Shown: piece by piece, positions 36,193-52,821 of the stretch
How positions within the stretch are numbered: position 1 is the stretch's first letter
How the letters are laid out: every line of letters starts with the position of its first letter
DNA from: Onthophagus taurus
Taxonomy: Eukaryota > Arthropoda > Insecta > Coleoptera > Scarabaeidae
Length of the DNA stretch: 64,000 bases
Assembly: GCF_036711975.1 (NCBI RefSeq)
Contig: NC_091967.1
Location: forward strand, 14,508,001 to 14,572,000
Direction: 5' to 3'
Position numbers and translations under genes: made by a program
The notes under the pieces: model-generated
The model's input: the letters and a program-made list of their open reading frames with translations, nothing else
Database searches by the model: none
Told to the model about the DNA's origin: nothing

Positions 36193-36581
36193 ACCTTTGT
36201 TGTTATATCTTGATTAATTTTTTAATTTCATCAATCATATTTCTTTTTTACAAGAAAACTAAATGTGTACAGTTTTAAGCATAGAAACCGAATAGATATT
36301 ATCTTTCCAATGTAAATAACTTGATAAAATAGATACAATTATTTAATTAGTAGTGTTTTTTTTTGTACAATTCAACGCGTTGGTCTTTTAGATTTAAATG
36401 CAATTAGGATCTTAATCAAAATTTTTGAAGTGTTTATAAGATATCGATTTATAGATATCTAATGATGTAAGCAAAGTTGTCAAAAATTATTGATTTTTTT
36501 TTAAAACTACTCAAACTGATATGGTACGAATCCCTATAAATACACTAAAAAACATGAAGTCAATTGAAATCGATTGGCACC
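36193..36581. other. Spacer between lipase genes 7 and 8
   Basis: This AT-rich 389 bp stretch presumably contains the lipase 8 promoter; a TATAAATAC sequence lies at 36535-36543, about 40 bp before the ATG. Nothing else was seen. Confidence 0.4.
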
Positions 36582-37649
36582 ATGGAACGCTTAGCATTCT
36601 TAGTAGTTTTAGCTTTATTCTCTGCTGGTAAGTAGGATTATAGTTGAAACAAATATAACTTTGATTAAAATTTAATCATTTTTACAGCAACTTTTGCGGA
36701 AATCAATGTAGAAGAAGATGTAACGTTCCGTCTTTTTACCAAGTCAGTATTTTATTTATTTATCGTAGACTTTATTCTGATTTTTTTATTTTGCATTATA
36801 GAAATAATAAATATGAATGGAAAAACCTTGGTTTTGACGTTGAAAATATTACCTCGTCTGGTTTCGATTTCGACAAAGACACTAAGATCATCACCCATGG
36901 ATTTTTAAATAACGGAAGTGGAATGTCTTGCATCGCTTTAAGAGATGCTTTCCTCGAACACCAAGATTTGAATGTAATTATTGTTGATTATGACAAAATT
37001 GCCGCTGATTTACTTTTGATGCCCGAAGATAAAGTAAAAATGACTGGAGAACATGTGGCCAAAATGGTTGATTTTCTGATTCTCCATGGACTTGATACAA
37101 GTAAAATTCACTTATTAGGTCACAGTTTAGGTGGTCATGTCGTTGGATATGCTGCTACACATGCACATAATGGAAAAGTTGCTAGAGTTTCTGGTTAGAT
37201 TCTTTACTTACTCAATTTTATATTTTATGTAACCAATTTTTTCTTGTAAAGGTTTGGATCCTGCCCTTATGGTCAATATGGACGACGACGCCGTTCTTAA
37301 TCCCGATGCAGCTGAATACGTCGATGTCATTCACACATGCCAAGGAGTCTATGGTACCACCAAATCAATTGGAACAGTTGATTTCTGGCCCAACGGTGGC
37401 CGTGCCACACAACCAACATGCGACGTTTTAGGAGGTGTTACTTGCAGCCATTACGAAGCTGTTCGTTTCATGACTAGAAGCATAAATGATCCTGAAAGAT
37501 ACCCTGCTCGTTTTTGCAAATCTGAGGATGATTTTAATGATGGAATCTGTGATGGTAATGAAATCGCTTACATGGGTATTGCTGCTGGGCGCCCAGCATT
37601 TGGAGATTATTACATCAATACTGAAGATGAAGGCGATGATATTAATTAA
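36582..37649 (+). CDS. Secreted pancreatic-type lipase / PLA1-like protein 8
   Basis: Four exons: 36582-36627, 36688-36742, 36802-37193 and 37252-37649, giving 296 aa, the shortest of the eight, with a reduced N-terminal region. Signal peptide MERLAFLVVLALFSA. Motifs are KIITHGFLNNG, NVIIVDYDKI (Tyr for the usual Trp after VD), the nucleophile in LGHSLGGHVVGYAA, VSG|LDPALM with the acid, VDVIHTCQG, TVDFWPNGG and the triad His in CSHYEAVRFMTRSI. The triad is complete. It ends in an acidic EDEGDDIN tail. Its last exon uses more C-ending codons (GAC, GCC, TAC, ACC) than the other lipases, which may indicate high expression. Confidence 0.92.
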
Positions 37650-37914
37650 TGGTTTTTATTAAAAATAAGTGATTTTTATTGTATTACCTCTGTAAAATAA
37701 ATATACTATTATTTTAATATTTTGACTCATTAATTTCTCAACAAACTCAAAATGAAAACTCGTTAGTATTTTTTTAATCATCGCACATAATGCAATGATA
37801 ACAAATTGAACATGTTAACGAACTCATTTGTGTGTTCAAACCTAATCATTAAAATATATATTTCCTCATACCTGATAACATAGCTAATCTTATTCTACAA
37901 ACAGCATTTGAAAA
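37650..37914. other. 3' flank of lipase gene 8
   Basis: This AT-rich stretch separates the last lipase gene from the mariner remnant. It probably contains the 3'UTR and polyadenylation signals (AATAAATA near 37697). Confidence 0.4.
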
Positions 37915-38532: not shown

Positions 38533-40233
38533 TAAGAGTGATAAACGATGAAATAAACGTATTTCTTCAAACGATGATACTATACGCCTTATTTTATTCT
38601 AAGTAATATAGATTTTGGAAATAAAGTATTAATGAAACCATTTTCGAGTGGGTTAACATTCGAATCGTTTCCAATTAAACGTCAATACATTTCGTTTATT
38701 TCTAATTTCACTCTACGTCGGTGTCAATACGTCGTAGTAGCCCAATAGACCGCCCCCTAGTATTGTAATGTACACAATACGAAGTTGGACGTACTCAAGG
38801 GGGGGAATAGGGGGATATTGGACAATAGAACATGGCCGTGGACATCGCATTTCCACCACGCATTCGCGAGAAGCACTCGTGTTAAAAACTACACGTTATT
38901 TTTTTTCTGGGACGATCTTAAATAAAAGAATTTTTGAAATAAAAAAATTGCAATTACTCCATCTTGATTTTGTGTTTGATGTTAGAACCTATTCGAATTC
39001 TGTACCTTCTTCACACCAACTTTTATTATGTGGTTGGTTGATAAAAAGACCAAACATGCCAGTGTTAAGAAGACGTGTCATCGCAAATCACGATAAACGT
39101 ATTCAACCAAACGGCCTGTACGTCCATTCCAGTCCGCCAAGGGGTAAGTTATGCAAATTAGGCACTTTGTAATAGTTTGAAATAGTTAAAGAAAGGTTTA
39201 GTGGTGCGAGTACACACGATTGTAGAAAATCGCGATAGCCTTTCCGCCTTGAATGAATCCTTTAGTGGTTTATGTAAATTTCTTTGGGGTTGAGACCGTA
39301 TTGTAAAAGGATTTAATGGTATAGTTAAAGTCGTTCTTTTCTTGTATCTTGAAACGGTACCAAGGAATATTTATATTAAGTACTCCTTTTTGGAATATTT
39401 ATTTTGCAGTAAAGCGTTGTTCTTTTACTAAAACATTTTTGCAGAGTAATTTTTTTATGTTAACACTTTTTAATGTAATACAAAGGGATTATTATTCGAG
39501 TACGTTACCCTTAGTCACGCTACCGACATTAACAATGTATTTAAACGTCAGTCTAAAGTGGTAAGCACTTCATGTTCAAACAAAAGAATTCATAATTTTA
39601 GTTTTGAAAACAGTCTCTTTCAGTTGTGTACACATAACTTGCACGAAAGCAGCACCCATGAAAATGAAAATTGAAATGTGTTCATTATGGTCTATTTTAA
39701 TGCCTTTTTAATAACACCTTTAAGAATTAATTTATTCAAACCGATAAAATGGTAATTGGTAAACAATGAAACTTTATTTTTATCGTACCAAACTAATTCT
39801 AACTTTACACGTTCCGTTCGGAAACTAATAAAAGTGTAAAATTGACTATTTCTGGTCAAACGCAAAAATCTTTCGTCAAAAATTGATCAAACATTGTGGC
39901 TGAAACTTTACTATTGAGCTTTTTATTTACGGGTAATCGTCATGTGGAATAACCGCTGTTCTCACGATAACGACTTGTACACAAGTTTCGCGCCAACCCT
40001 CTTTGGTTGGCGTTTCAGTCGCACGTCAGGTTTAGTTGTGATCCGCGACTTTTTCGGCACACTTCGCACTCCATCTTATAATTATTTTGATATTTAAGAT
40101 TTTAAAAAATTAAGAGTAATATAATATTTTGAGCAACCTAAATTGAACATAAAGAATTAAGTTAGCAAAATTGAAATTGTTACTTTTTCGAAATTGGATT
40201 CAAACTGTAATTGTTTTTGTTAAAGTTTTACAG
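38533..40233. other. Intergenic, upstream of ankyrin gene A
   Basis: It holds a GC-raised patch at about 38715-39145. A candidate orphan coding exon lies at 39056-39143 (MPVLRRRVIANHDKRIQ...), with a perfect AAGGG|gtaagt donor in phase 1. Its phase does not fit the next exon at 40234. No confirmed first exon was found for gene A. Confidence 0.3.
39987..40012. promoter_or_regulatory. E2F-like site within a palindrome upstream of ankyrin gene A
   Basis: The sequence TTTCGCGCC at 39987-39995 fits the E2F/DP consensus TTTSGCGC, and it overlaps an inverted repeat CGCCAACC ... GGTTGGCG at 39991-40012. It lies 220 bp before the first ankyrin exon seen. Regulatory function is inferred. Confidence 0.3.
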
Positions 40234-41731
40234 ATTAATTCTGCTCATATTAAACAATTAATCAGAAACGGAGACATCGAAAAATTAGAAAACATCGTTT
40301 TAGAAGGCCAGGGTAAAAAATTACTCAGTGAATCCAGTTTGGACTACAGAGTAAAAACATTTTTGAAAGGATTACCAGCATTAATGGTAAGATTCTCCTT
40401 CAATATGTAATAATAATAAAAATTGAAATGATCCGGCGAAAGCGAAATTCAGTTATTGTAAACTTCGCATGTGGAAAAGTAGTTACAAAAGCCAATTTTA
40501 TTTAAACAAGGTTACATTAATTTCTAAAATTGGAAGTGGTCGGTTATTGAAGGTCGATTATACGCGGTTTTCACTCAATTTGCGCTTTTCTTATCGCAAA
40601 AGTAGTAAAAGCCTCTTGTATCAATTCTTCGACACAAAACATCGAACAAAAGGTGATTGCTGACCAATTTTCTTTTGACAGTAACTATCTATCCACGCTC
40701 AAGTGGGTCAGGTTAATTGTCAGCTATTATTTATTGATAATGGGAACGATAAAATCGATGAAAACCCTTCGGAACGATTTCTTCACAAAAAAAAAACTTA
40801 TTAACTTTACGGAATCGATAAGACAAATTTTGAAATAATAAAAATTTGACCCAAATTCTTAGACGCGCTAATGTCTCGTGGAAAATTGAATCATATTTCT
40901 ACGACCACATTTTCATTATTATTTTACCAGTAAATAAACACAAAGGTGTTATTCACCCCGACACAATTACCATTCGTATCCCCCGAGGGTAGTCAACATA
41001 ATGCTTCCTTAAATATTAATCCTTTGTTTATGATTACCATTGGACATTATTTATTTTTACATTGTCACATCGCGTGATCGTCCGGTATATCCATATAACA
41101 CTGCCAACACCCAAGTCATCATTCTTCACAATATATTACCATTTTCAATAAAATTATTTTAACTATCAGATAAGTAATTAGATATAAACTAAAAATATGA
41201 AATATAAAAGAAATTATTTACACCTCCTCATTATTTTAGTCAAAAGTAAGTTTACTTCACGATGCAGTTAATAGTGGACGACTGGAAGAACTTCAATCAC
41301 TTCTTGATGAAGAGCCGGATAAAAAGAGAAAATTGGTTTTGGCTAAGGATGACGCTGGGGTTGGATTAATACACAAAGCCGTTTATTACGATCTCAAAGA
41401 TATCGCGAAATATTTGATTGATAATTATCCAGCAACTGTTCATCAAAAAGATGCGGTATAACAAAATCAATAAAAGAATATGATGGAAAATATTTATTAT
41501 TTCGCATTTTTATAGGAAAGTAGAACTGCTTATCATTACACACCAATGTGCAAAGATAAAGGTTATATACAAAAACTGTTAAAGTTTGCCGGTGCTGACC
41601 CGAATGTGGTGGATGTTAAACAGCATACTCCTAAATACTACATGGAGCACCCATCAGAACTTGAATTACCCAGTCCTATAAAATCAACTAATCAATCTAG
41701 GCGTGGAACAGCTGGGAAAGACAGTGAGTAA
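40234..41731 (+). CDS. Ankyrin-repeat gene A (N-terminus unresolved)
   Basis: Three exons: 40234-40386, 41240-41455 and 41516-41731, giving 194 aa visible. The first exon encodes AHIKQLIRNGDIEKLENIVLEGQG, then KTFLKGLPALM, the same module start seen twice in the next gene. Exons 2-3 encode ankyrin-type helices (SLLHDAVNSGRLEELQSLLD, GLIHKAVYYDLKDIAKYLID, then TAYHYTPMCKDKGYIQKLLKFAGADPN). The frame either ends GKDSE-stop at 41731 or splices at GACA|gtgagt (41723, phase 1) six codon positions earlier. No in-frame Met lies at the start, so a coding exon upstream is missing. It is a paralogue of the modules at 43736-46559. Confidence 0.7.
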
Positions 41732-43735: not shown

Positions 43736-46700
43736 ATGACCTCAGGTTTAGTCATCAAGAAATCTAACATCAGAATATGGATACATCAAAGGAACCTCAC
43801 CAATTTACAGCAAGTAGTGTGGGAGGGCCAGGGATCAAAGCTTTTGGTCGAACACAGCACGAATCCTAAAGTGAAGAAATTCTTGGAAGCTGTGCCACCT
43901 ATTATGGTAAGTCAAAACATTTCTCAAGTTAAAATAAAATTCTTATTTTTTGCGGATAACAAAATAAAAATAGTACCTAATGGTTAATATGGAGTTTCGT
44001 GACTCCTCTTTTTAATGTAACACCGATACCATCAAATACTCTTTTAAAATATAATTATTCGAAAGCTTTTCGCATGTTTAGTTAGATTTAACAGATACAC
44101 TAGAAGAACATGCAAACCTTTTAGAGGTCGTTAACATTTTATTTTTTGGTTAGAAATGTTAAAATTATCGTCTATACCAAATTCTCAGAACAAAATATTA
44201 TCTAATTATATCATAAACTATGAATCATATTTCTATATTTTCAATTATAAAATGTCCCAACCCACGTTCACGTAACTTTGGATCCTGCGTGATACAATTG
44301 TTGTAAACGAAGTAAATAGAACGAATCAATTGCGATGCAATTCAGTATCACGATGAACTTTGTCAGGAAACATAACAAAAATTCTTCAGGTACAAATATT
44401 AACTTTTGGTTTTCGTTGCTTCAATTTTGGAATAGAGCTTAATTAAGGATCTTCACACTGACGTTATCAACAACGATTGTGACGCCTTGAAAGCGCACTC
44501 AACGGATCCAATCCCTCCGGTGGTATTGTCGGCGAAAGACGCTAATGGCTTGACGCCATTACATAAGGTATATTTATAGAAATTATTTAATATTTGATGA
44601 GAAGTAAGTATATTAATAGGCAGCTGGTCTTGGGCATCACGAAGTAGCTGAATATATTATTGGGAAGTACCCAAAAAGTTTGTCTTTAAGAGACAATGAA
44701 GGACGAACACCTCTTCATTACGCCGCATTACCAAAGGATGATGGAAAAATGTTCGATCTGCTTATGGCTTCAGGAGCTGATGAATCTGCTTTAGATAATG
44801 TAAGTTTATTTTCGACAGGCGTAAATAATAAAATAATTTTATCAATTTATAATTTAGAAACAAAAAACAGCTGCGTTTTACAAAGCCAGAAATAACGAAT
44901 TAGATCCAAAGCTTTGCCACGTTATACCAGAATGCCCTCGCATGGCAAAAGACTCGTTCCCCAATAATTGGGACTGGGCGATTTTAGGATCCGCTGCTAC
45001 ACCCGTCGAAGAAGTGATCAAAAACGGCAATAACATGGCCGAAGGTGTTTTTGGAAGTACAATGGATTTAGAGAAGGCTAAAGAAGAGGAGTTAAAGAGT
45101 AACGAGAAAAATGAAGAAGAAACTAATGGTGATCATAATGACGAATCCAAGGGAAACGAAGAAAATGCACATGAACTCCATAACAACGATAGTGCAGTAG
45201 TGATGGAAAATGAGGAAGAAAAGGAACAGGATGAAGCTGAAGAACAGGAATCAGAAACTATCCCAGAAAATGAACCAGAAATCATAACCGAACCAGAAGT
45301 ACATGAAGAAACGTCTAATTCCGAACACAATGAAACAGATCATGAAACACAAGGAGAAGAAGATCATGAAGAACGAGAACACGAAGAATCAGAACACGAT
45401 GAGCAAGAACATGAACAACAAGAAGACGAAGAACAAAAACATGTAGAACAAGCAAGACAACCATCATTAGAAAAGACGGAGAAGGAGGAAGAGGAGAATT
45501 CCAAGGAAGTTGAAGATCAACCTATCCACGAAGAAAATCAAGAAGAAGCCAAAGAAGAAGAAGTAGAAAATAAATCCTCAGCAACTTCAATAGAAAACTC
45601 TCCAGCAAAAACCATAGAAGTAACGGAAGAAGAACCAGAAGCTCCAATAGTGGATAGTGAAGATGTTATAGAAGGAGTTGTAAATGGGGAAAACGAAGTA
45701 GAATCTGTAAATGAAGAAGGTCAAGGTGTACAAGATGACGATCCACCCACAGACGATGATATAACCGCTTTAATTGAAGCTGGAAATATGGAACAACTCG
45801 CTGGATTGGTTTTGAATGGTAAAGGAAATCGATTAGTCGGTCATACTTCCCAAAATCCAGAGTTGCAGGCTTTTTTAAACAACGTTCCCACATACATGGT
45901 AATATTTAAACTTATTAAGAGGTCACGTCACAGCATCGATCATAAGCACCTAAAACTGGTTAAAATCACACATTTGCTAACTAATCAGCAGTTGAAGGTC
46001 CATGCTGTAACATGACATGCTTTCAAAGTCTTAATACCTAAGTTCCGCCATTCGTTCTAAATTAATCTTTTAGGCGAAAATCAATAAAATTCACGTCGCT
46101 GCAAGAAATGGGACGTTAAAGGAGTTGCAAGCTGCTTTGGATAGACGTAAATTTGCCGTATCCAAGGATCCTATATCTCCGGATGGAGCCTCCCCTCTAC
46201 ACGTAGCAACAATTTTTGGAAATACCAGCATTGTTCGATACTTAGCTGGACGCTTTCCTGAAACAGTATCAGTAGTGGATAATAATGGAAGAACACCTCT
46301 CCATTATGCAGCTACTGTAGCTGATAATGGACACTACTATAATTTGTTGGTACATTTAGGAGCAAATATGAGAACAGATGATAACGTAGGATACTTCACA
46401 TTAATTAATATCATAATTCTATTTTTCTGTTTTTATTTGTTCAGTTTGGACATTCACCTGAATACTACAAAACTAACCAAGAAGACCTATCACATCGAAA
46501 TCTACTTGTGAGATTTGGTGCTGATGAAAACGTCTTAGAAGAAATGATAAACGATAAAGGTAAGTGTTTTTATTTTATCATGGTGCATTAATTTAGGCGC
46601 TTATTAGTGTTGCCGTTTCAAACAGAACTTGTACAGTCACTAGTTTTTCCGTCATTTATTCATAGCGCTTGTATAGATTGGTTATTAACATATTATCATC

Positions 46701-48104
46701 ATGAATTGAAATTTTAAATAAAATTTTTTACATTTTTATTGAATGGTAAATATAATTACTACTACAGTTCCTAATGACGACTGCACGGCGAGAAAAGATT
46801 TGGATGATGAAGACATGATTGCAGTACTTGACAAATGCTACGCGGTATTGCATGGAAGACGAAATTCGAACACGTCAGTTTCTTCGACTTTAACAACTAC
46901 TACAACTGCTTCGACATCAAGTGGTCAGTGCTTAATTGGTAGACATATGAGACGGTTTACTTTTGATAAAGTCAAACTAAGAATCACAAAACTTGATCAC
47001 AACTTATATGATATTATCTGGCCTAGCGTCAAGAAGTTACCGCAAGATCTATCGTTTCGGGTAGCTTTAGAACAAGATTTTCCTGCAGGAATTGTGGCAC
47101 CCGATGTTTATGCGTATACAGTTTTTAGAGAATTTTTGGAACCTATAATTAAAGATATTAATAATATCGATTTACATACAGATTTAAAAGAACAACCAAA
47201 ATCTCAATTTATAAATGTTAATAAACCAGAAGATATAGACTTAGACTTAGATTCTAACGTTAAAAATATACTCACCGCTACATTAGAATGTACGCGAAAC
47301 TTAGAAGAGTTTGAGTTTCCTAAAATGTTGAACGTGGGGCAATTAGAAGAGGTGGAGAAAATTTTAACAACTGCACTATTAAGTCATGAAGTGGCAAGCT
47401 CATTGTATCCTAATGCTACTAAACAAGATATTGTTGAAAAAGGTGGTGGGACTTATTATACTATGAATGAAGTTTTGGAAGAGCCATCAGAAGCTCGAGT
47501 AATATTGTCTTCAAACGGGTTAATGATACCTTTGTGGAACGTTGCTCAATCTGATAGATTACATGGTAAACATTGGCCATATGGGAGAGGAGTATTTATA
47601 AGTAATTCGGCCAATTTTGCCGCCTGGATCAACGTGTTAGACCATTTAAGAATAGTCACATGTTCCCCATCGCAAACACCGGGAAATATCGGAAGAATTT
47701 ATTCAAGAATAAATAGAGTTATGACATCTTTGAATAAATATTTGATTTTTAAACGAGATGTTAAACTGGGTTATTTATCAGCTAGACCTTCAGCTCTTGG
47801 TAACACTTTACACTTTAATTTAACAGTTGCATTTCCAAATTTGATAAAGGAACCAGACAACCTAAAACATCTTTGTTCAGTGAGAGGACTACATTTTCAT
47901 AGAGGTAGTTTAACAAATGATGTTGTTCGAATAGGCAACGAACAAACGTTAGGCATAACAGAACTTCAAACATTCGAGGATTTTACAACAGCCGTGGCTA
48001 ATATTCTTCAACTTGAGAAGGACTTAGCCATGTCGAATTCGATGCATATAGCTGCCATGTTCGTTAATATATTTAGAAGAAAGAAAGCTAGTCTTGCAGA
48101 ATAG
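43736..48104 (+). CDS. Ankyrin-repeat protein fused to an inactive arginine-kinase-like domain
   Basis: Seven exons: 43736-43906, 44448-44567, 44620-44799, 44858-45898, 46074-46385, 46445-46559 and 46768-48104, giving 1091 aa. Two homologous ankyrin modules are separated by a Glu-rich linker of about 270 residues. The last exon (444 residues) is a phosphagen-kinase fold. AGIVAPDVYAYTVFREFLEP matches the AK N-domain, and YGRGVFISNSANFAAWIN, DHLRIVTCSP, GNIGRIYSRINRVM, LGYLSARPSALGN and LGITELQ match the C-domain. Catalytic residues are gone: the reactive Cys (TFCPTN) is Arg, NEEDHLR is NVLDHLR, and the STRVRCGR ATP-binding Args are absent. This predicts a pseudoenzyme. A Ser/Thr run (SSTLTTTTTAS) precedes the domain. 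It could be a scaffold. An alternative C-terminus is listed separately. Confidence 0.85.
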
Positions 48105-48475
48105 CAATTAGCGCATTAAATTTTAAGTTATAATTAGATCGTAAGGATGTACATAGTGCCAAATTTTTGATTTCATTGTTTTATTTATTCACAAATGCAT
48201 TGTGGACGGACAACCTGATAGGTCAGTAAATATTTACCGCTTTAACGGCACCCGTTTATTATTTGTCGTGAGACGTTCATTCTAAAAACATGTGACGTTT
48301 TTTGTATATCCAGGCACTCAGCACTGCTCTATCGACATTGTTTCTATTGTCGTGTTGGCTTCTTCTTGTGTGTCATATGTGGTCACCTAACCAGGTTATT
48401 CATAAATGAGAACACAAATCAAAATACCACCCTATTTAAACAGTAATAACAACAATCGATATTTTTTGGTTACAG

Positions 48476-48650
48476 GTAGTCCACCAAAAGATGCTCAGGT
48501 AGAGATGCCTTTCTTTTGCACGGAAGAAGGTCGTTATTTGGCATCTTGTAAGTTATCCCTAGTTATTACAATTACACTTAGTCAGATCATACCACACACC
48601 AACAAATATCTTAAAACATATTTATCTATTTCATAGACGAGCCAAAGTAG
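48476..48650 (+). CDS. Alternative C-terminal exons for the ankyrin gene (short tail)
   Basis: Exons 48476-48547 and 48637-48650 encode a 28-residue tail, with the first Gly codon split across the junction: GSPPKDAQVEMPFFCTEEG, then RYLASYEPK and stop. The acceptor tttggttacag|GT has the same phase (1) as the kinase exon at 46768, so the donor at 46559 (AAAG|gtaagt) can join either exon. Skipping the kinase exon would give a 674-residue ankyrin protein without the kinase-like domain. The open frame, good acceptor and donor (TCTT|gtaagt) and exact phase support it. It could also be part of an independent small transcript starting near 48406. Confidence 0.55.
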
Positions 48651-48658
48651 TTATTAAA

Positions 48659-49980
48659 ATGTTTCCAGCGTTAGGAGATCCACTCATTAAAGGTTTAACA
48701 GAGGTTGCCAATAAACGTCCAGACGACCCAATTGCCTATCTTGCAACTTACTTATACAATTTTGCTAATAATAATAATAGAGGAAGAACCAGGGGTGGCA
48801 CTCAGGTTAATACAATACAAAATCCTATAATAGTAGATTCATTGAAAGTTTTAGGAAACCCAACAACATATTATCACCGGTTCCCCTAATGCTGAAAATA
48901 ATAACGCAGTCCCAGCAACAATAGAAGTGGTAACACTAGAACCAGAACACAACAATCAAGAAGATTCTGCATTCAATGCAACAAATAGGGTGCGTATATA
49001 TATTTTAGAGAATCAATTTTATTATGCCATATTTTATGTAGGATGAACATGGACAAAGCATGCTTCATTTTGCTGCTGCACGAACACATGGTAGAAATGC
49101 ATTATTCCAATTGCTATCAGAAACAGAAATTAACATTGGATACAGAGATGAACTATACAGGACTGCTAGAGACATTAGTATTCAAGCCAACATACCGGAA
49201 AATACAGTCCAAGTTGATAAATACGTGGTTCATATTGCATCCAAAGGTAGTGTAAATTATTTGTGTTCTAAATGCAATTAAATATCTAAATCTTTCTTTA
49301 TTTTAGGTGACACCGACAAATTAGTGGAGTTACTTCTAGATGGTTATGATCATATAATAAACATCATAGACGAAGAAGGCCAACCTATTTTAGATGCTGT
49401 TACACAAGCGGGTCAACCAGAAACCGTTGCATTTTTACAATCAATTCTGGCTTTTGAAGTATGTTATTAAATTAAAATACAACATTAATATAAGAATTTT
49501 TAACAATAACAGGAACGACGCGAACGTGTTCATCATTGCATCCGGGAAGGCTCCCTCAACGACATTAAGAAGCTCCTCGCAGATGAAAACGAAACAGGCA
49601 GTGGTAAACTCCTTGCTATCGGCAGGAATAGTTATGGAAGATGCACTCTTCATATAGCAGTATTATGCCAACAAGAAGAAATTGTTGATTTTATTGCTAA
49701 CACATTCCCCGATACATTAAGGATTGGTGATAATGTAAGGACACTATTATCAAATAATTTAATTAAATTAAATTTTAAAACATTCTTTTTTATTGTTCAG
49801 CTGGAAAGAACGGCTCTGCACTACGCAATGGGTGTTGAAAAAATCGAATCGATTAGTAGGGTGTTGATTAAGGCAGGAGCTCAGAGAGTTGTTAAAGATT
49901 TAAAGGGGCGGCAACCCACTTATTATTTTATGAATAAATCTGATATATTAAGGCTTCAGGAAGAAGAAGAAATGTTTTAA
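48659..49980 (+). CDS. Dpy-30-motif / ankyrin-repeat protein
   Basis: Five exons: 48659-48989, 49042-49246, 49307-49458, 49513-49734 and 49801-49980, about 362 aa if exon 1 is read in one frame. The N-terminus MFPALGDPLIKGLTEVANKR then PDDPIAYLATYLYNF is a Dpy-30 dimerisation motif, used for docking to AKAP/ASH2L-type helices and common in axonemal proteins. Ankyrin-type repeats follow (SMLHFAAARTHGRNALFQLL, VHIASKG/DTDKLVELLLDG, RCTLHIAVLCQQEEIVDFI, TALHYAMGVEKI). The frame of exon 1 breaks by one base at about 48855-48880: the Dpy-30 frame hits a stop at 48887 while the SPNAENNNAVP frame continues to the donor. A CCC/CC run is the likely site, so an assembly error or allele is possible. The ATG lies 8 nt after the upstream stop. 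Confidence 0.8.
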
Positions 49981-51542: not shown

Positions 51543-52821
51543 TCACTGTGACGATGGTTTAAGATTTGCGTCGATGTTTGGTACCCACGGAGTTGGATTT
51601 ATATAAGTTACAGAGGCAGACGATTGTAGAGCTGTAAAAATAACTTTATAGAACCTTCGACATTGGTTTGGTTGAAAATCTTACATTTTATACCCTGATT
51701 AGGTGCTATTGGTTTAGGTTTATTCTTTGACGAAGCTAACCATTGTTGGTATGCCCTTTCGCTTTCTTCTAAACGTTGTTGTCTTTCTTGGTCTGATTTC
51801 ATTACTTTTCTTTGTTCATTAATTTTTTTTTCTAAACATAATAATTAACACTAACACTATTTAGATTTGATATAACAATTCTTTTACCTAATGATCTTTG
51901 TTCTTTTTTCTTTAGCCATAATCGAAAATTCATTTCGTTTTCAGACATCCTTTTAGATTTCTCTTCCTCTAGCATTTTTTCCTTCTTTATTTGATCTTGG
52001 ATTTCTTTTTGTTTCTTAGCTTCTTCCATTTTCTTTTTGAACAGCCACCTTTTAAAGTTTTCCCTTTCTTGTTGCAATTGTAATTCCTTCTCCCTTTCTT
52101 TAATCTCTCTAATTAGGGCTTCTTTTTCTTCTTGTAACTTTTTTTGGTGATTTTTTCTGGCACACCAATTCTTAAACGTCTCTTCTCTATCTTTATCAAT
52201 CATACAACGTCCACTTAGTATAGAAGTAGACTCTAATGACAGCTTAAGCTCGTCTTGGAAATTATTTATTGAAATTTGGCTACGAGAATCGCATAAATTA
52301 ACAGAAGTGTTTATTTCATCCATCGCTTGGGTAGAGAGTGATTGATTAAGTACTGCGCAGCTATCGTCTTGCAAATTATTTAAATCTATCTTATCGATGT
52401 CTCCGTTCCTATGATCAGTACCGTAATTTTCACAACTTTTACTGTTATTTATTGTGATACAGGCACTCTGGCTTCTAGCACTCTCACGGAACGAGCTCTC
52501 GGCAGAGCTAGGGTGACATGGACAGTTTTTGGGATTTGAGAAACAAACACATTTCTTCACCTTAACCACTTTATTTTGAATTGCCTCGTCGTCGCTTGCA
52601 TAATTTACATACAACGGGCTCCGTCTAAGTGGGGCCATTTGACAAATTGATGATTCCACATATACCGCAGGATTCACGTACTGACGAATGACCCTTATTG
52701 ACTCCGAAGATCCCGTAGTCTTGCAACGACCATTTAATAAAGTGCTACCACTACCCTCCTTTTTTACGTTTTCTACATTAGCTAGATTATCACCGGATTG
52801 TGTCGGTTCAGTCGCTTGCAT
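51543..52821 (-). CDS. Coiled-coil protein of CCDC34/MAP9-like type
   Basis: Three minus-strand exons: 51888-52821, 51685-51831 and 51543-51631, giving 389 aa. The first 200 residues are low-complexity with a short Cys cluster (KKCVCFSNPKNCPCHP). The second half is a charged coiled coil with four spaced aromatic motifs: FKNWCARKN, FKRWLFKKKMEE, FRLWLKKKEQR and YQQWLASSKNKPKP. This spacing of (F/Y)xxW(L)xxK is characteristic of CCDC34, CCDC181 and MAP9-like cilium or microtubule-associated proteins. The end VTYINPTPWVPNIDAN resembles the family's C-terminal NPxPW motif. Exon 2 ends at AAAT|gtaaga (phase 1). Exact family assignment is uncertain. Confidence 0.75.

What the first reader, a model, noticed from the sequence alone, without database searches (positions are those of the whole stretch)
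46768..48104. Arginine-kinase fold fused to ankyrin repeats, with its active site erased
The last exon aligns along its whole length with arginine kinases (APDVYAYTVFREFLEPII; YGRGVF; DHLRIV; LGYLSARPSALGN; LGITEL). However, the reactive Cys is Arg, the NEED acidic pair is NVLD, the STRVRCGR nucleotide-binding arginines are missing and the TTVR arginine reads NTLH. The fold is kept while chemistry is lost, and it sits behind two ankyrin modules and a Glu-rich linker of about 270 residues. This suggests a phosphagen-kinase fold reused as a binding or scaffold domain. Seen: the sequence changes. Known: roles of these residues in Limulus and other arginine kinases. Inferred: scaffold role.
Basis: partly seen in the sequence, partly recalled or inferred. 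Interest (0 to 1): 0.75.

Follow-up and report, generated by a model that had tools for sequence, protein, structure and literature searches.

The report
Dead arginine kinase inside ankyrin gene
A copy of the energy enzyme arginine kinase that has kept its fold but lost its active site lies inside an intron of an insect-like gene for an ankyrin and DPY-30 protein, and may serve as an alternative protein tail, though no RNA was available to show that the two are joined.

Summary
The sequence observation holds. ORF 46743-48104 (453 aa) is a full-length arginine-kinase (AK) homolog (PF00217 E 7.6e-34, PF02807 E 9.5e-11). C271, E225, E314, H185, R124, R126 and R280 are replaced; R229 and R309 remain. 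The fold pattern is kept: 69 of 74 always-hydrophobic AK columns stay hydrophobic, and the frame is intact, so plain long decay is unlikely. It can be read on past the kinase unit, through a DPY-30 motif (PF05186 E 3.2e-16), to a fourth ankyrin module at 49980: 13 exons with GT-AG introns, 1,017 aa. The kinase unit lies inside the 1,916-base intron 46560-48475. It lacks an intron that both other AKs of this genome share, so it looks like an old retrocopy. Ankyrin plus DPY-30 is the architecture of the C. elegans sensory-cilium scaffold ARCP-1. Splice phases allow the copy as an alternative last exon, but its acceptor is weak and a nested independent gene fits almost as well. Fusion is not proven. 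AlphaFold failed (pLDDT 32), and no insect relatives could be searched.

The parts
46743..48104 (+). Intronless, catalytically dead arginine-kinase homolog (kinase unit); as an exon it would start at 46768
   Evidence: Open frame; PF00217 and PF02807; active-site losses; TGA directly before ATG 46743
43736..43906 (+). Candidate first coding exon of the ankyrin/DPY-30 gene (cap of ankyrin module 2), ATG at 43736
   Evidence: Open, phase 0
44436..44799 (+). Two exons (44436-44567, 44620-44799): ankyrin module 2
   Evidence: Ank models on the spliced piece
44858..45898 (+). Exon with the end of module 2, the Glu-rich linker (257 aa, 31% Glu) and the cap of module 3
46074..46559 (+). Two exons (46074-46385, 46445-46559): ankyrin module 3; donor at 46559 in phase 1
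   Evidence: Ank_2 E 1.2e-12 on ORF 46074-46508
46560..48475 (+). 1,916-base intron that holds the kinase unit; the other 11 introns of the 13-exon model are 49 to 529 bases
48476..48989 (+). Exons 48476-48547, 48669-48805, 48855-48989: DPY-30 motif and linker
   Evidence: PF05186 E 3.2e-16, profile 2-41 of 42; nearest solved relatives are DPY30 proteins, AK7 and NME5
49042..49980 (+). Exons 49042-49246, 49307-49458, 49513-49734, 49801-49980: fourth ankyrin module and stop
   Evidence: Ank_2 E 1.7e-14 on the spliced piece
39056..41723 (+). Possible upstream alternative start with ankyrin module 1 (39056-39143, 40226-40386, 41240-41455, 41516-41723), ending in phase 1, so that it too could join 46768 or 48476
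   Evidence: Open frame of 591 aa when joined to 48476-49980; acceptor near 40226 looks poor (not scored at that base)

Best explanation
An old, full-length, intronless copy of an animal arginine kinase came to lie in sense orientation in an intron of an ankyrin/DPY-30 gene. It lost catalysis but kept its fold. Most likely it is used as an alternative last exon: splicing 46559 to 48476 gives a 1,017-aa protein with a DPY-30 docking motif and a fourth ankyrin module; splicing 46559 to 46768 gives a 1,095-aa protein in which a dead AK domain replaces that tail. The likely work of the host protein is to scaffold signalling or structural proteins in a cilium, as the similarly built ARCP-1 does. 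The AK-tailed form would keep the ankyrin contacts, lose DPY-30 docking, and offer the AK surface for binding instead. Shown: the sequence changes, the domain matches, open spliced frames and phases, absence of the AK intron. Inferred: retrocopy origin, use as an exon, cilium location, binding role.
For: Both AK domains and full-length similarity. Active-site residues lost beyond what other invariant columns show. Core pattern kept. Frame open although a neutral walk to 27% identity gave at least 6 stops in 200 of 200 runs. AK1 and AK2 share a phase-1 intron at the same Gly codon that this unit lacks. Donor 46559 and acceptor 46768 agree in phase and give one open frame. No strong donor in the last 200 bases of the unit, so it reads as a terminal exon (best 6 of 9 consensus matches). 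ATTAAA at 48115, 11 bases after the stop. Host gene with DPY-30 motif; ARCP-1 has the same two domain kinds (PMC6953435).
Against: No RNA. The acceptor is weak, and agreement in phase is expected one time in three. The unit has its own ATGs and can stand alone. Three non-ORF AGs upstream score higher as acceptors (46597, 46637, 46677). No target-site repeat longer than 9 bases and no A-run of 6 or more remains after the stop, so retroposition is not directly seen; a 12-residue insertion close to the lost intron site could mean intron retention instead. ARCP-1 homology rests on architecture, not on a sequence comparison.
Confidence: 0.45

Rival explanations
1. The kinase unit is an independent, nested, intronless gene with its own promoter and ATG inside the intron, encoding a stand-alone dead AK that is not joined to ankyrin.
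For: It is a complete domain pair with its own ATGs; the ankyrin/DPY-30 gene is whole without it; the acceptor at 46768 is weak; similarity to AK reaches back to AK residue 5, near the AK start (24 of 2,000 shuffles as good).
Against: No eukaryotic promoter could be tested. The phase fits the host donor. A weak score does not exclude use: the DPY-30 acceptor at 48669, supported by the motif it completes, scores lower still (0.9).
Confidence: 0.38
2. The domain is a dead end in decay, neither translated nor selected.
For: Catalytic residues are gone; no expression evidence exists.
Against: At 27-29% identity to the AKs of the same genome the frame is open, the core pattern is kept and codon positions 1 and 2 agree with AK1 more than position 3 (0.42, 0.56, 0.28 over 345 codons). 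These tests cover the whole divergence; recent decay after long use is not excluded.
Confidence: 0.06
3. The domain still binds a nucleotide or guanidino ligand as a sensor, without catalysis.
For: R229, R309, D226 and one loop glycine (G66) remain.
Against: Three of five phosphate-binding arginines, H185, both carboxylates E225 and E314, C271 and Y68 are replaced.
Confidence: 0.08

Closest known systems
Arthropod arginine kinase (AK1 and AK2 of this genome; solved crayfish, shrimp and Limulus AKs)
   Same: Both Pfam domains, full-length alignment, hydrophobic core pattern
   Different: 27-29% identity where AK1 and AK2 share 63%; catalytic residues lost; no intron; insertions of about 12 and 15 residues and a longer N-terminal part
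ARCP-1 (F34D10.6) of C. elegans, a dendritic-cilium scaffold that binds PDE-1
   Same: The host gene has ankyrin repeats and a DPY-30 motif; arcp-1 also has two transcripts that overlap at the 3' end (PMC6953435, passages and section 10)
   Different: No kinase domain is mentioned for ARCP-1 in the passages seen; sequences not compared; four ankyrin modules and a Glu-rich linker here
DPY-30-motif proteins of the axoneme (DPY30-domain proteins 1 and 2, adenylate kinase 7, NME5)
   Same: DPY-30 motif; nearest solved relatives of that motif by sequence
   Different: Other domains differ; no axonemal location shown here
TRIM5-CypA of primates (recalled)
   Same: A retrocopied enzyme or binding domain inside an intron serves as an alternative last exon of a host gene
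   Different: There the junction is proven and the captured domain still binds its ligand; here neither is shown
Drosophila CG30274
   Same: Listed only as 'kinase' among genes depleted in amos antennae (PMC6829134, passages and section 15 part 1); that it carries ankyrin and ATP:guanido phosphotransferase domains is recall only
   Different: No sequence or domain data seen in any call; a lead, not a test

Membership tests
Arginine kinase (active phosphagen kinase) | PF02807 and PF00217 domains | tested here: met
   E 9.5e-11 and 7.6e-34, both over the curated cut-off
Arginine kinase (active phosphagen kinase) | Catalytic E225, E314 and reactive C271 | tested here: not met
   L, H and R; roles of E225 and C271 seen in PMC12387690 passages, E314 recalled
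Arginine kinase (active phosphagen kinase) | Five phosphate-binding arginines 124, 126, 229, 280, 309 (recalled) | tested here: not met
   Two of five kept, R229 and R309
Arginine kinase (active phosphagen kinase) | AK fold in three dimensions | tested here: inconclusive
   AlphaFold pLDDT 32, unusable; core pattern kept, 69 of 74 columns
Ankyrin/DPY-30 scaffold (ARCP-1 type) | Ankyrin repeats plus DPY-30 motif in one frame | tested here: met
   1,017-aa spliced frame by exon prediction, no RNA
Ankyrin/DPY-30 scaffold (ARCP-1 type) | Sequence orthology to ARCP-1 | not tested
   ARCP-1 sequence not held
Ankyrin/DPY-30 scaffold (ARCP-1 type) | Cilium location and binding of signalling partners | not testable with these tools
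   Needs experiment
Retrocopy used as alternative last exon | Loss of the parent gene's introns | tested here: met
   Intron shared by AK1 and AK2 is absent
Retrocopy used as alternative last exon | Target-site duplication or poly-A remnant | tested here: not met
   Longest shared word of the flanks 9 bases, no A-run of 6 or more within 372 bases after the stop; expected to be lost at this age
Retrocopy used as alternative last exon | Spliced junction with the host exon | tested here: inconclusive
   Phase fits, acceptor weak; no RNA held

The most novel reading that the evidence does not exclude
A dead phosphagen kinase has been captured as a swappable C-terminal tail of an ankyrin/DPY-30 cilium scaffold, so that alternative splicing chooses between docking through DPY-30 and binding through an AK-shaped surface: a phosphagen-kinase pseudoenzyme reused as a protein-binding module, comparable in origin to TRIM5-CypA.
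Probability: 0.35. Interest if true: 0.7.

Novelty: new variant of a known kind. Interest (0 to 1): 0.5.

Why it matters
Pseudoenzymes are well known among protein kinases, but the ten paper searches run (open-licence papers only, judged by title and start of abstract) listed none on a dead phosphagen kinase or an ankyrin-AK protein. If the junction is real, an energy enzyme has become part of a scaffold in a probable ciliary gene, and a clear test follows: does the AK-tailed form go to the same place and bind the same partners as the DPY-30 form?

Tried and rejected
AlphaFold on the kinase ORF with the one partner that its rule clearly allows (bacterial AK L025) gave mean pLDDT 32 and was discarded; no fold search was run on it. 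Loci brought in by the genome search were not handed to the predictor because its rule does not list that tool. The second structure job was not used.

Relatives were sought in viral contigs (5 scans: no relative), prokaryote genomes (1 bacterial AK; 3 of 369 genomes, of one class only, have PF00217), phages (3 records, 22.9-25.3% identity, no annotation) and plasmids (5 records, 20.0-25.8% identity, 3 of them annotated as protein arginine kinase). None of these collections can show an insect ortholog. NCBIfam gave only weak matches far under their cut-offs (McsB-type for the kinase unit, ankyrin effectors for module 3).

A supposed frameshift in the exon after the kinase unit was rejected: a 49-base intron (48806-48854) restores the frame. 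The acceptor first assumed at 48648 was replaced by 48669, which raised the DPY-30 match from E 1.9e-13 (profile 10-41) to 3.2e-16 (profile 2-41).

For ankyrin module 1 I first used acceptors 40234 and 40227, which break the frame after exon 39056-39143; 40226 keeps it open. Which start is used is unresolved.

An internal-exon reading of the kinase unit was considered and set aside: none of the 10 GT sites in its last 200 bases matches the donor consensus at more than 6 of 9 places. The bacterial promoter and terminator scan does not apply to an insect and was ignored. Passages of PMC9934393, PMC6829134, PMC13215054, PMC9494239, PMC10224340, PMC6367277, PMC4321029, PMC4341237, PMC3646015, PMC8022946 and PMC8285658 named no ankyrin-AK protein.

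Full report
What was checked. The window is G000:C2:14508001-14572000 of a 290.8-Mb, 33-contig genome. I take it for an insect from its gene content (inference; no call names it). The frame 46743-48104 is open for 453 codons; at its base composition a random frame of that length would stay open with probability about 3e-16. It carries PF00217 (E 7.6e-34) and PF02807 (E 9.5e-11) and matches 45 distinct solved sequences: arginine, taurocyamine, creatine, lombricine, glycocyamine and protein-arginine kinases. Arthropod AKs align over residues 59/62 to 428 (best E 5.9e-30). In its own genome PF00217 has 4 places, which I read as three genes: AK1 on C8, AK2 in two exons on C2, and the window unit.

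Active site. I aligned the unit with AK1, AK2 and three bacterial AKs. In Limulus numbering (recalled; roles of G64, V65, G66, Y68, E225 and C271 also seen in passages of PMC12387690) the unit has F, P, A, G, V at 63, 64, 65, 66, 68; T at 124; E at 126; G at 185; V and L at 224 and 225; D at 226; R at 229; R at 271; S and A at 273 and 274; H at 280; R at 309; H and R at 314 and 315. Both catalytic carboxylates, the reactive cysteine, H185 and three of five arginines are gone. Of 53 columns invariant in the five other AKs, 4 of 16 catalytic and 24 of 37 other columns are kept (Fisher p = 0.015; the catalytic list was drawn up by me, so the test is modest). Of 74 columns hydrophobic in all five, 69 are hydrophobic here, against 13 of 84 all-polar columns. 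The fold is therefore very likely kept, though AlphaFold with two sequences gave no usable model (pLDDT 32).

Decay or function. A substitution-only neutral walk from the AK1 reading frame to 27% identity gave 6 or more stops in 200 of 200 runs, mean 18. Identity to AK1 at codon positions 1, 2 and 3 is 0.42, 0.56 and 0.28 over 345 codons. The protein was constrained during most of the divergence. This cannot exclude a recent loss of function; only relatives could.

The host gene. Downstream, exons 48476-48547 and 48669-48805 together encode a DPY-30 motif (PF05186 E 3.2e-16, profile 2-41 of 42); the nearest solved relatives of that stretch are DPY30-domain proteins 1 and 2, with DPY-30, adenylate kinase 7 and NME5 behind. 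Further exons to 49980 encode a fourth ankyrin module (Ank_2 E 1.7e-14). With the exons from 43736 this makes 13 exons, 12 GT-AG introns and one 1,017-aa frame. The kinase unit lies in the 1,916-base intron 46560-48475; the other 11 introns are 49 to 529 bases. Exon 48476 is open only after a phase-1 donor, such as 46559. So the gene is whole without the kinase unit. All exons here are predictions from frame, splice signals and domains; no RNA was seen. In a search of the own genome with this region, 34 places matched, most of them ordinary ankyrin repeats elsewhere; the DPY-30 part matched only in the window.

A second start. Exons 39056-39143, 40226-40386, 41240-41455 and 41516-41723 encode a further ankyrin module and end in phase 1; joined to 48476-49980 they give an open 591-aa frame. 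They could also join the kinase unit. Two starts with a shared 3' end would resemble arcp-1, whose two transcripts overlap at the 3' end (PMC6953435). This is unresolved.

Origin. AK1 and AK2 share a phase-1 intron at the same Gly codon; the window unit has no intron. Its similarity to AK1 covers the N-terminal domain (0 of 2,000 shuffles as good) and reaches AK residue 5 (AVLDK; 24 of 2,000 shuffles as good). A full-length retrocopy is the simplest origin. No target-site repeat or poly-A remnant was found. A 12-residue insertion close to the lost intron position could instead mean partial intron retention; this is open.

Joined or nested. Donor 46559 and acceptor 46768 agree in phase and give a 1,095-aa ankyrin-AK protein. 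But 46768 scores 3.3 bits on a small matrix of 18 supported acceptors (leave-one-out 1.0-12.7), and 11% of the plus-strand AGs of the window do as well; with the first matrix it was 2.2 bits and 15%. The DPY-30 acceptor at 48669 scores lower still (0.9), so a low score does not exclude use. A nested gene with its own ATG explains the same facts. I put alternative exon at 0.45 and nested gene at 0.38.

How it may work. ARCP-1 of C. elegans has ankyrin repeats and a DPY-30 domain, is enriched at sensory endings, binds the phosphodiesterase PDE-1 and localises it to the cilia of BAG neurons (PMC6953435; passages and section 10). By analogy the host gene would encode a cilium scaffold. An AK-tailed form would lack DPY-30 docking and carry a catalytically dead AK surface. 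Drosophila CG30274, called only 'kinase' and depleted in amos antennae (PMC6829134), may be a fly relative, but that it has ankyrin and guanido-kinase domains is recall alone. If so, the architecture already sits in databases, unstudied as far as my searches show.

Literature. Ten searches of the open-licence library listed no paper on an ankyrin-AK protein or a dead phosphagen kinase by title or start of abstract. One search listed 28 papers that hold both 'arginine kinase' and 'ankyrin'; I saw passages of 3 of them, where the words refer to different proteins, and the other 25 as listings only. One more hit, PMC12387690, uses 'catalytically inactive' for the open form of an ordinary AK.

Noticed in passing
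window 39056-41723: A further ankyrin module with its own possible start ATG, ending in phase 1, that can be joined in frame to the DPY-30 end (591 aa) and by phase also to the kinase unit; whether it is an alternative start or a separate gene is unresolved.
   Followed up: partly
window 40234-40386, 43736-43906, 45760-45898: A stretch of about 45 residues ending in a Met and a phase-0 donor recurs before ankyrin modules 1, 2 and 3, so the gene seems built from repeated cap-plus-ankyrin units (by eye).
   Followed up: no
window 44950-45760: Glu-rich linker (31% Glu over 257 aa); long Glu-rich stretches are also known in some ciliary proteins (recalled).
   Followed up: no
L029 (G000:C2:6141500-6151000): A second AK (AK2), 63% identical to AK1, with a longer, different N-terminal part and an extra intron; catalytic residues intact.
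   Followed up: partly
window 51832-52821 (-): A 329-aa open frame on the minus strand, rich in charged coiled-coil-like repeats, downstream of the ankyrin gene.
   Followed up: no
window 36580-37650: A gene that looks by eye like a secreted lipase, upstream of the ankyrin locus; its three acceptors were used in the splice matrix.
   Followed up: no
L025; plasmid record NZ_CP110821.1 (hit H4): AK-like genes in a Rhodoferax MAG and on a plasmid of Candidatus Bandiella woodruffii, the latter annotated as hypothetical protein.
   Followed up: no
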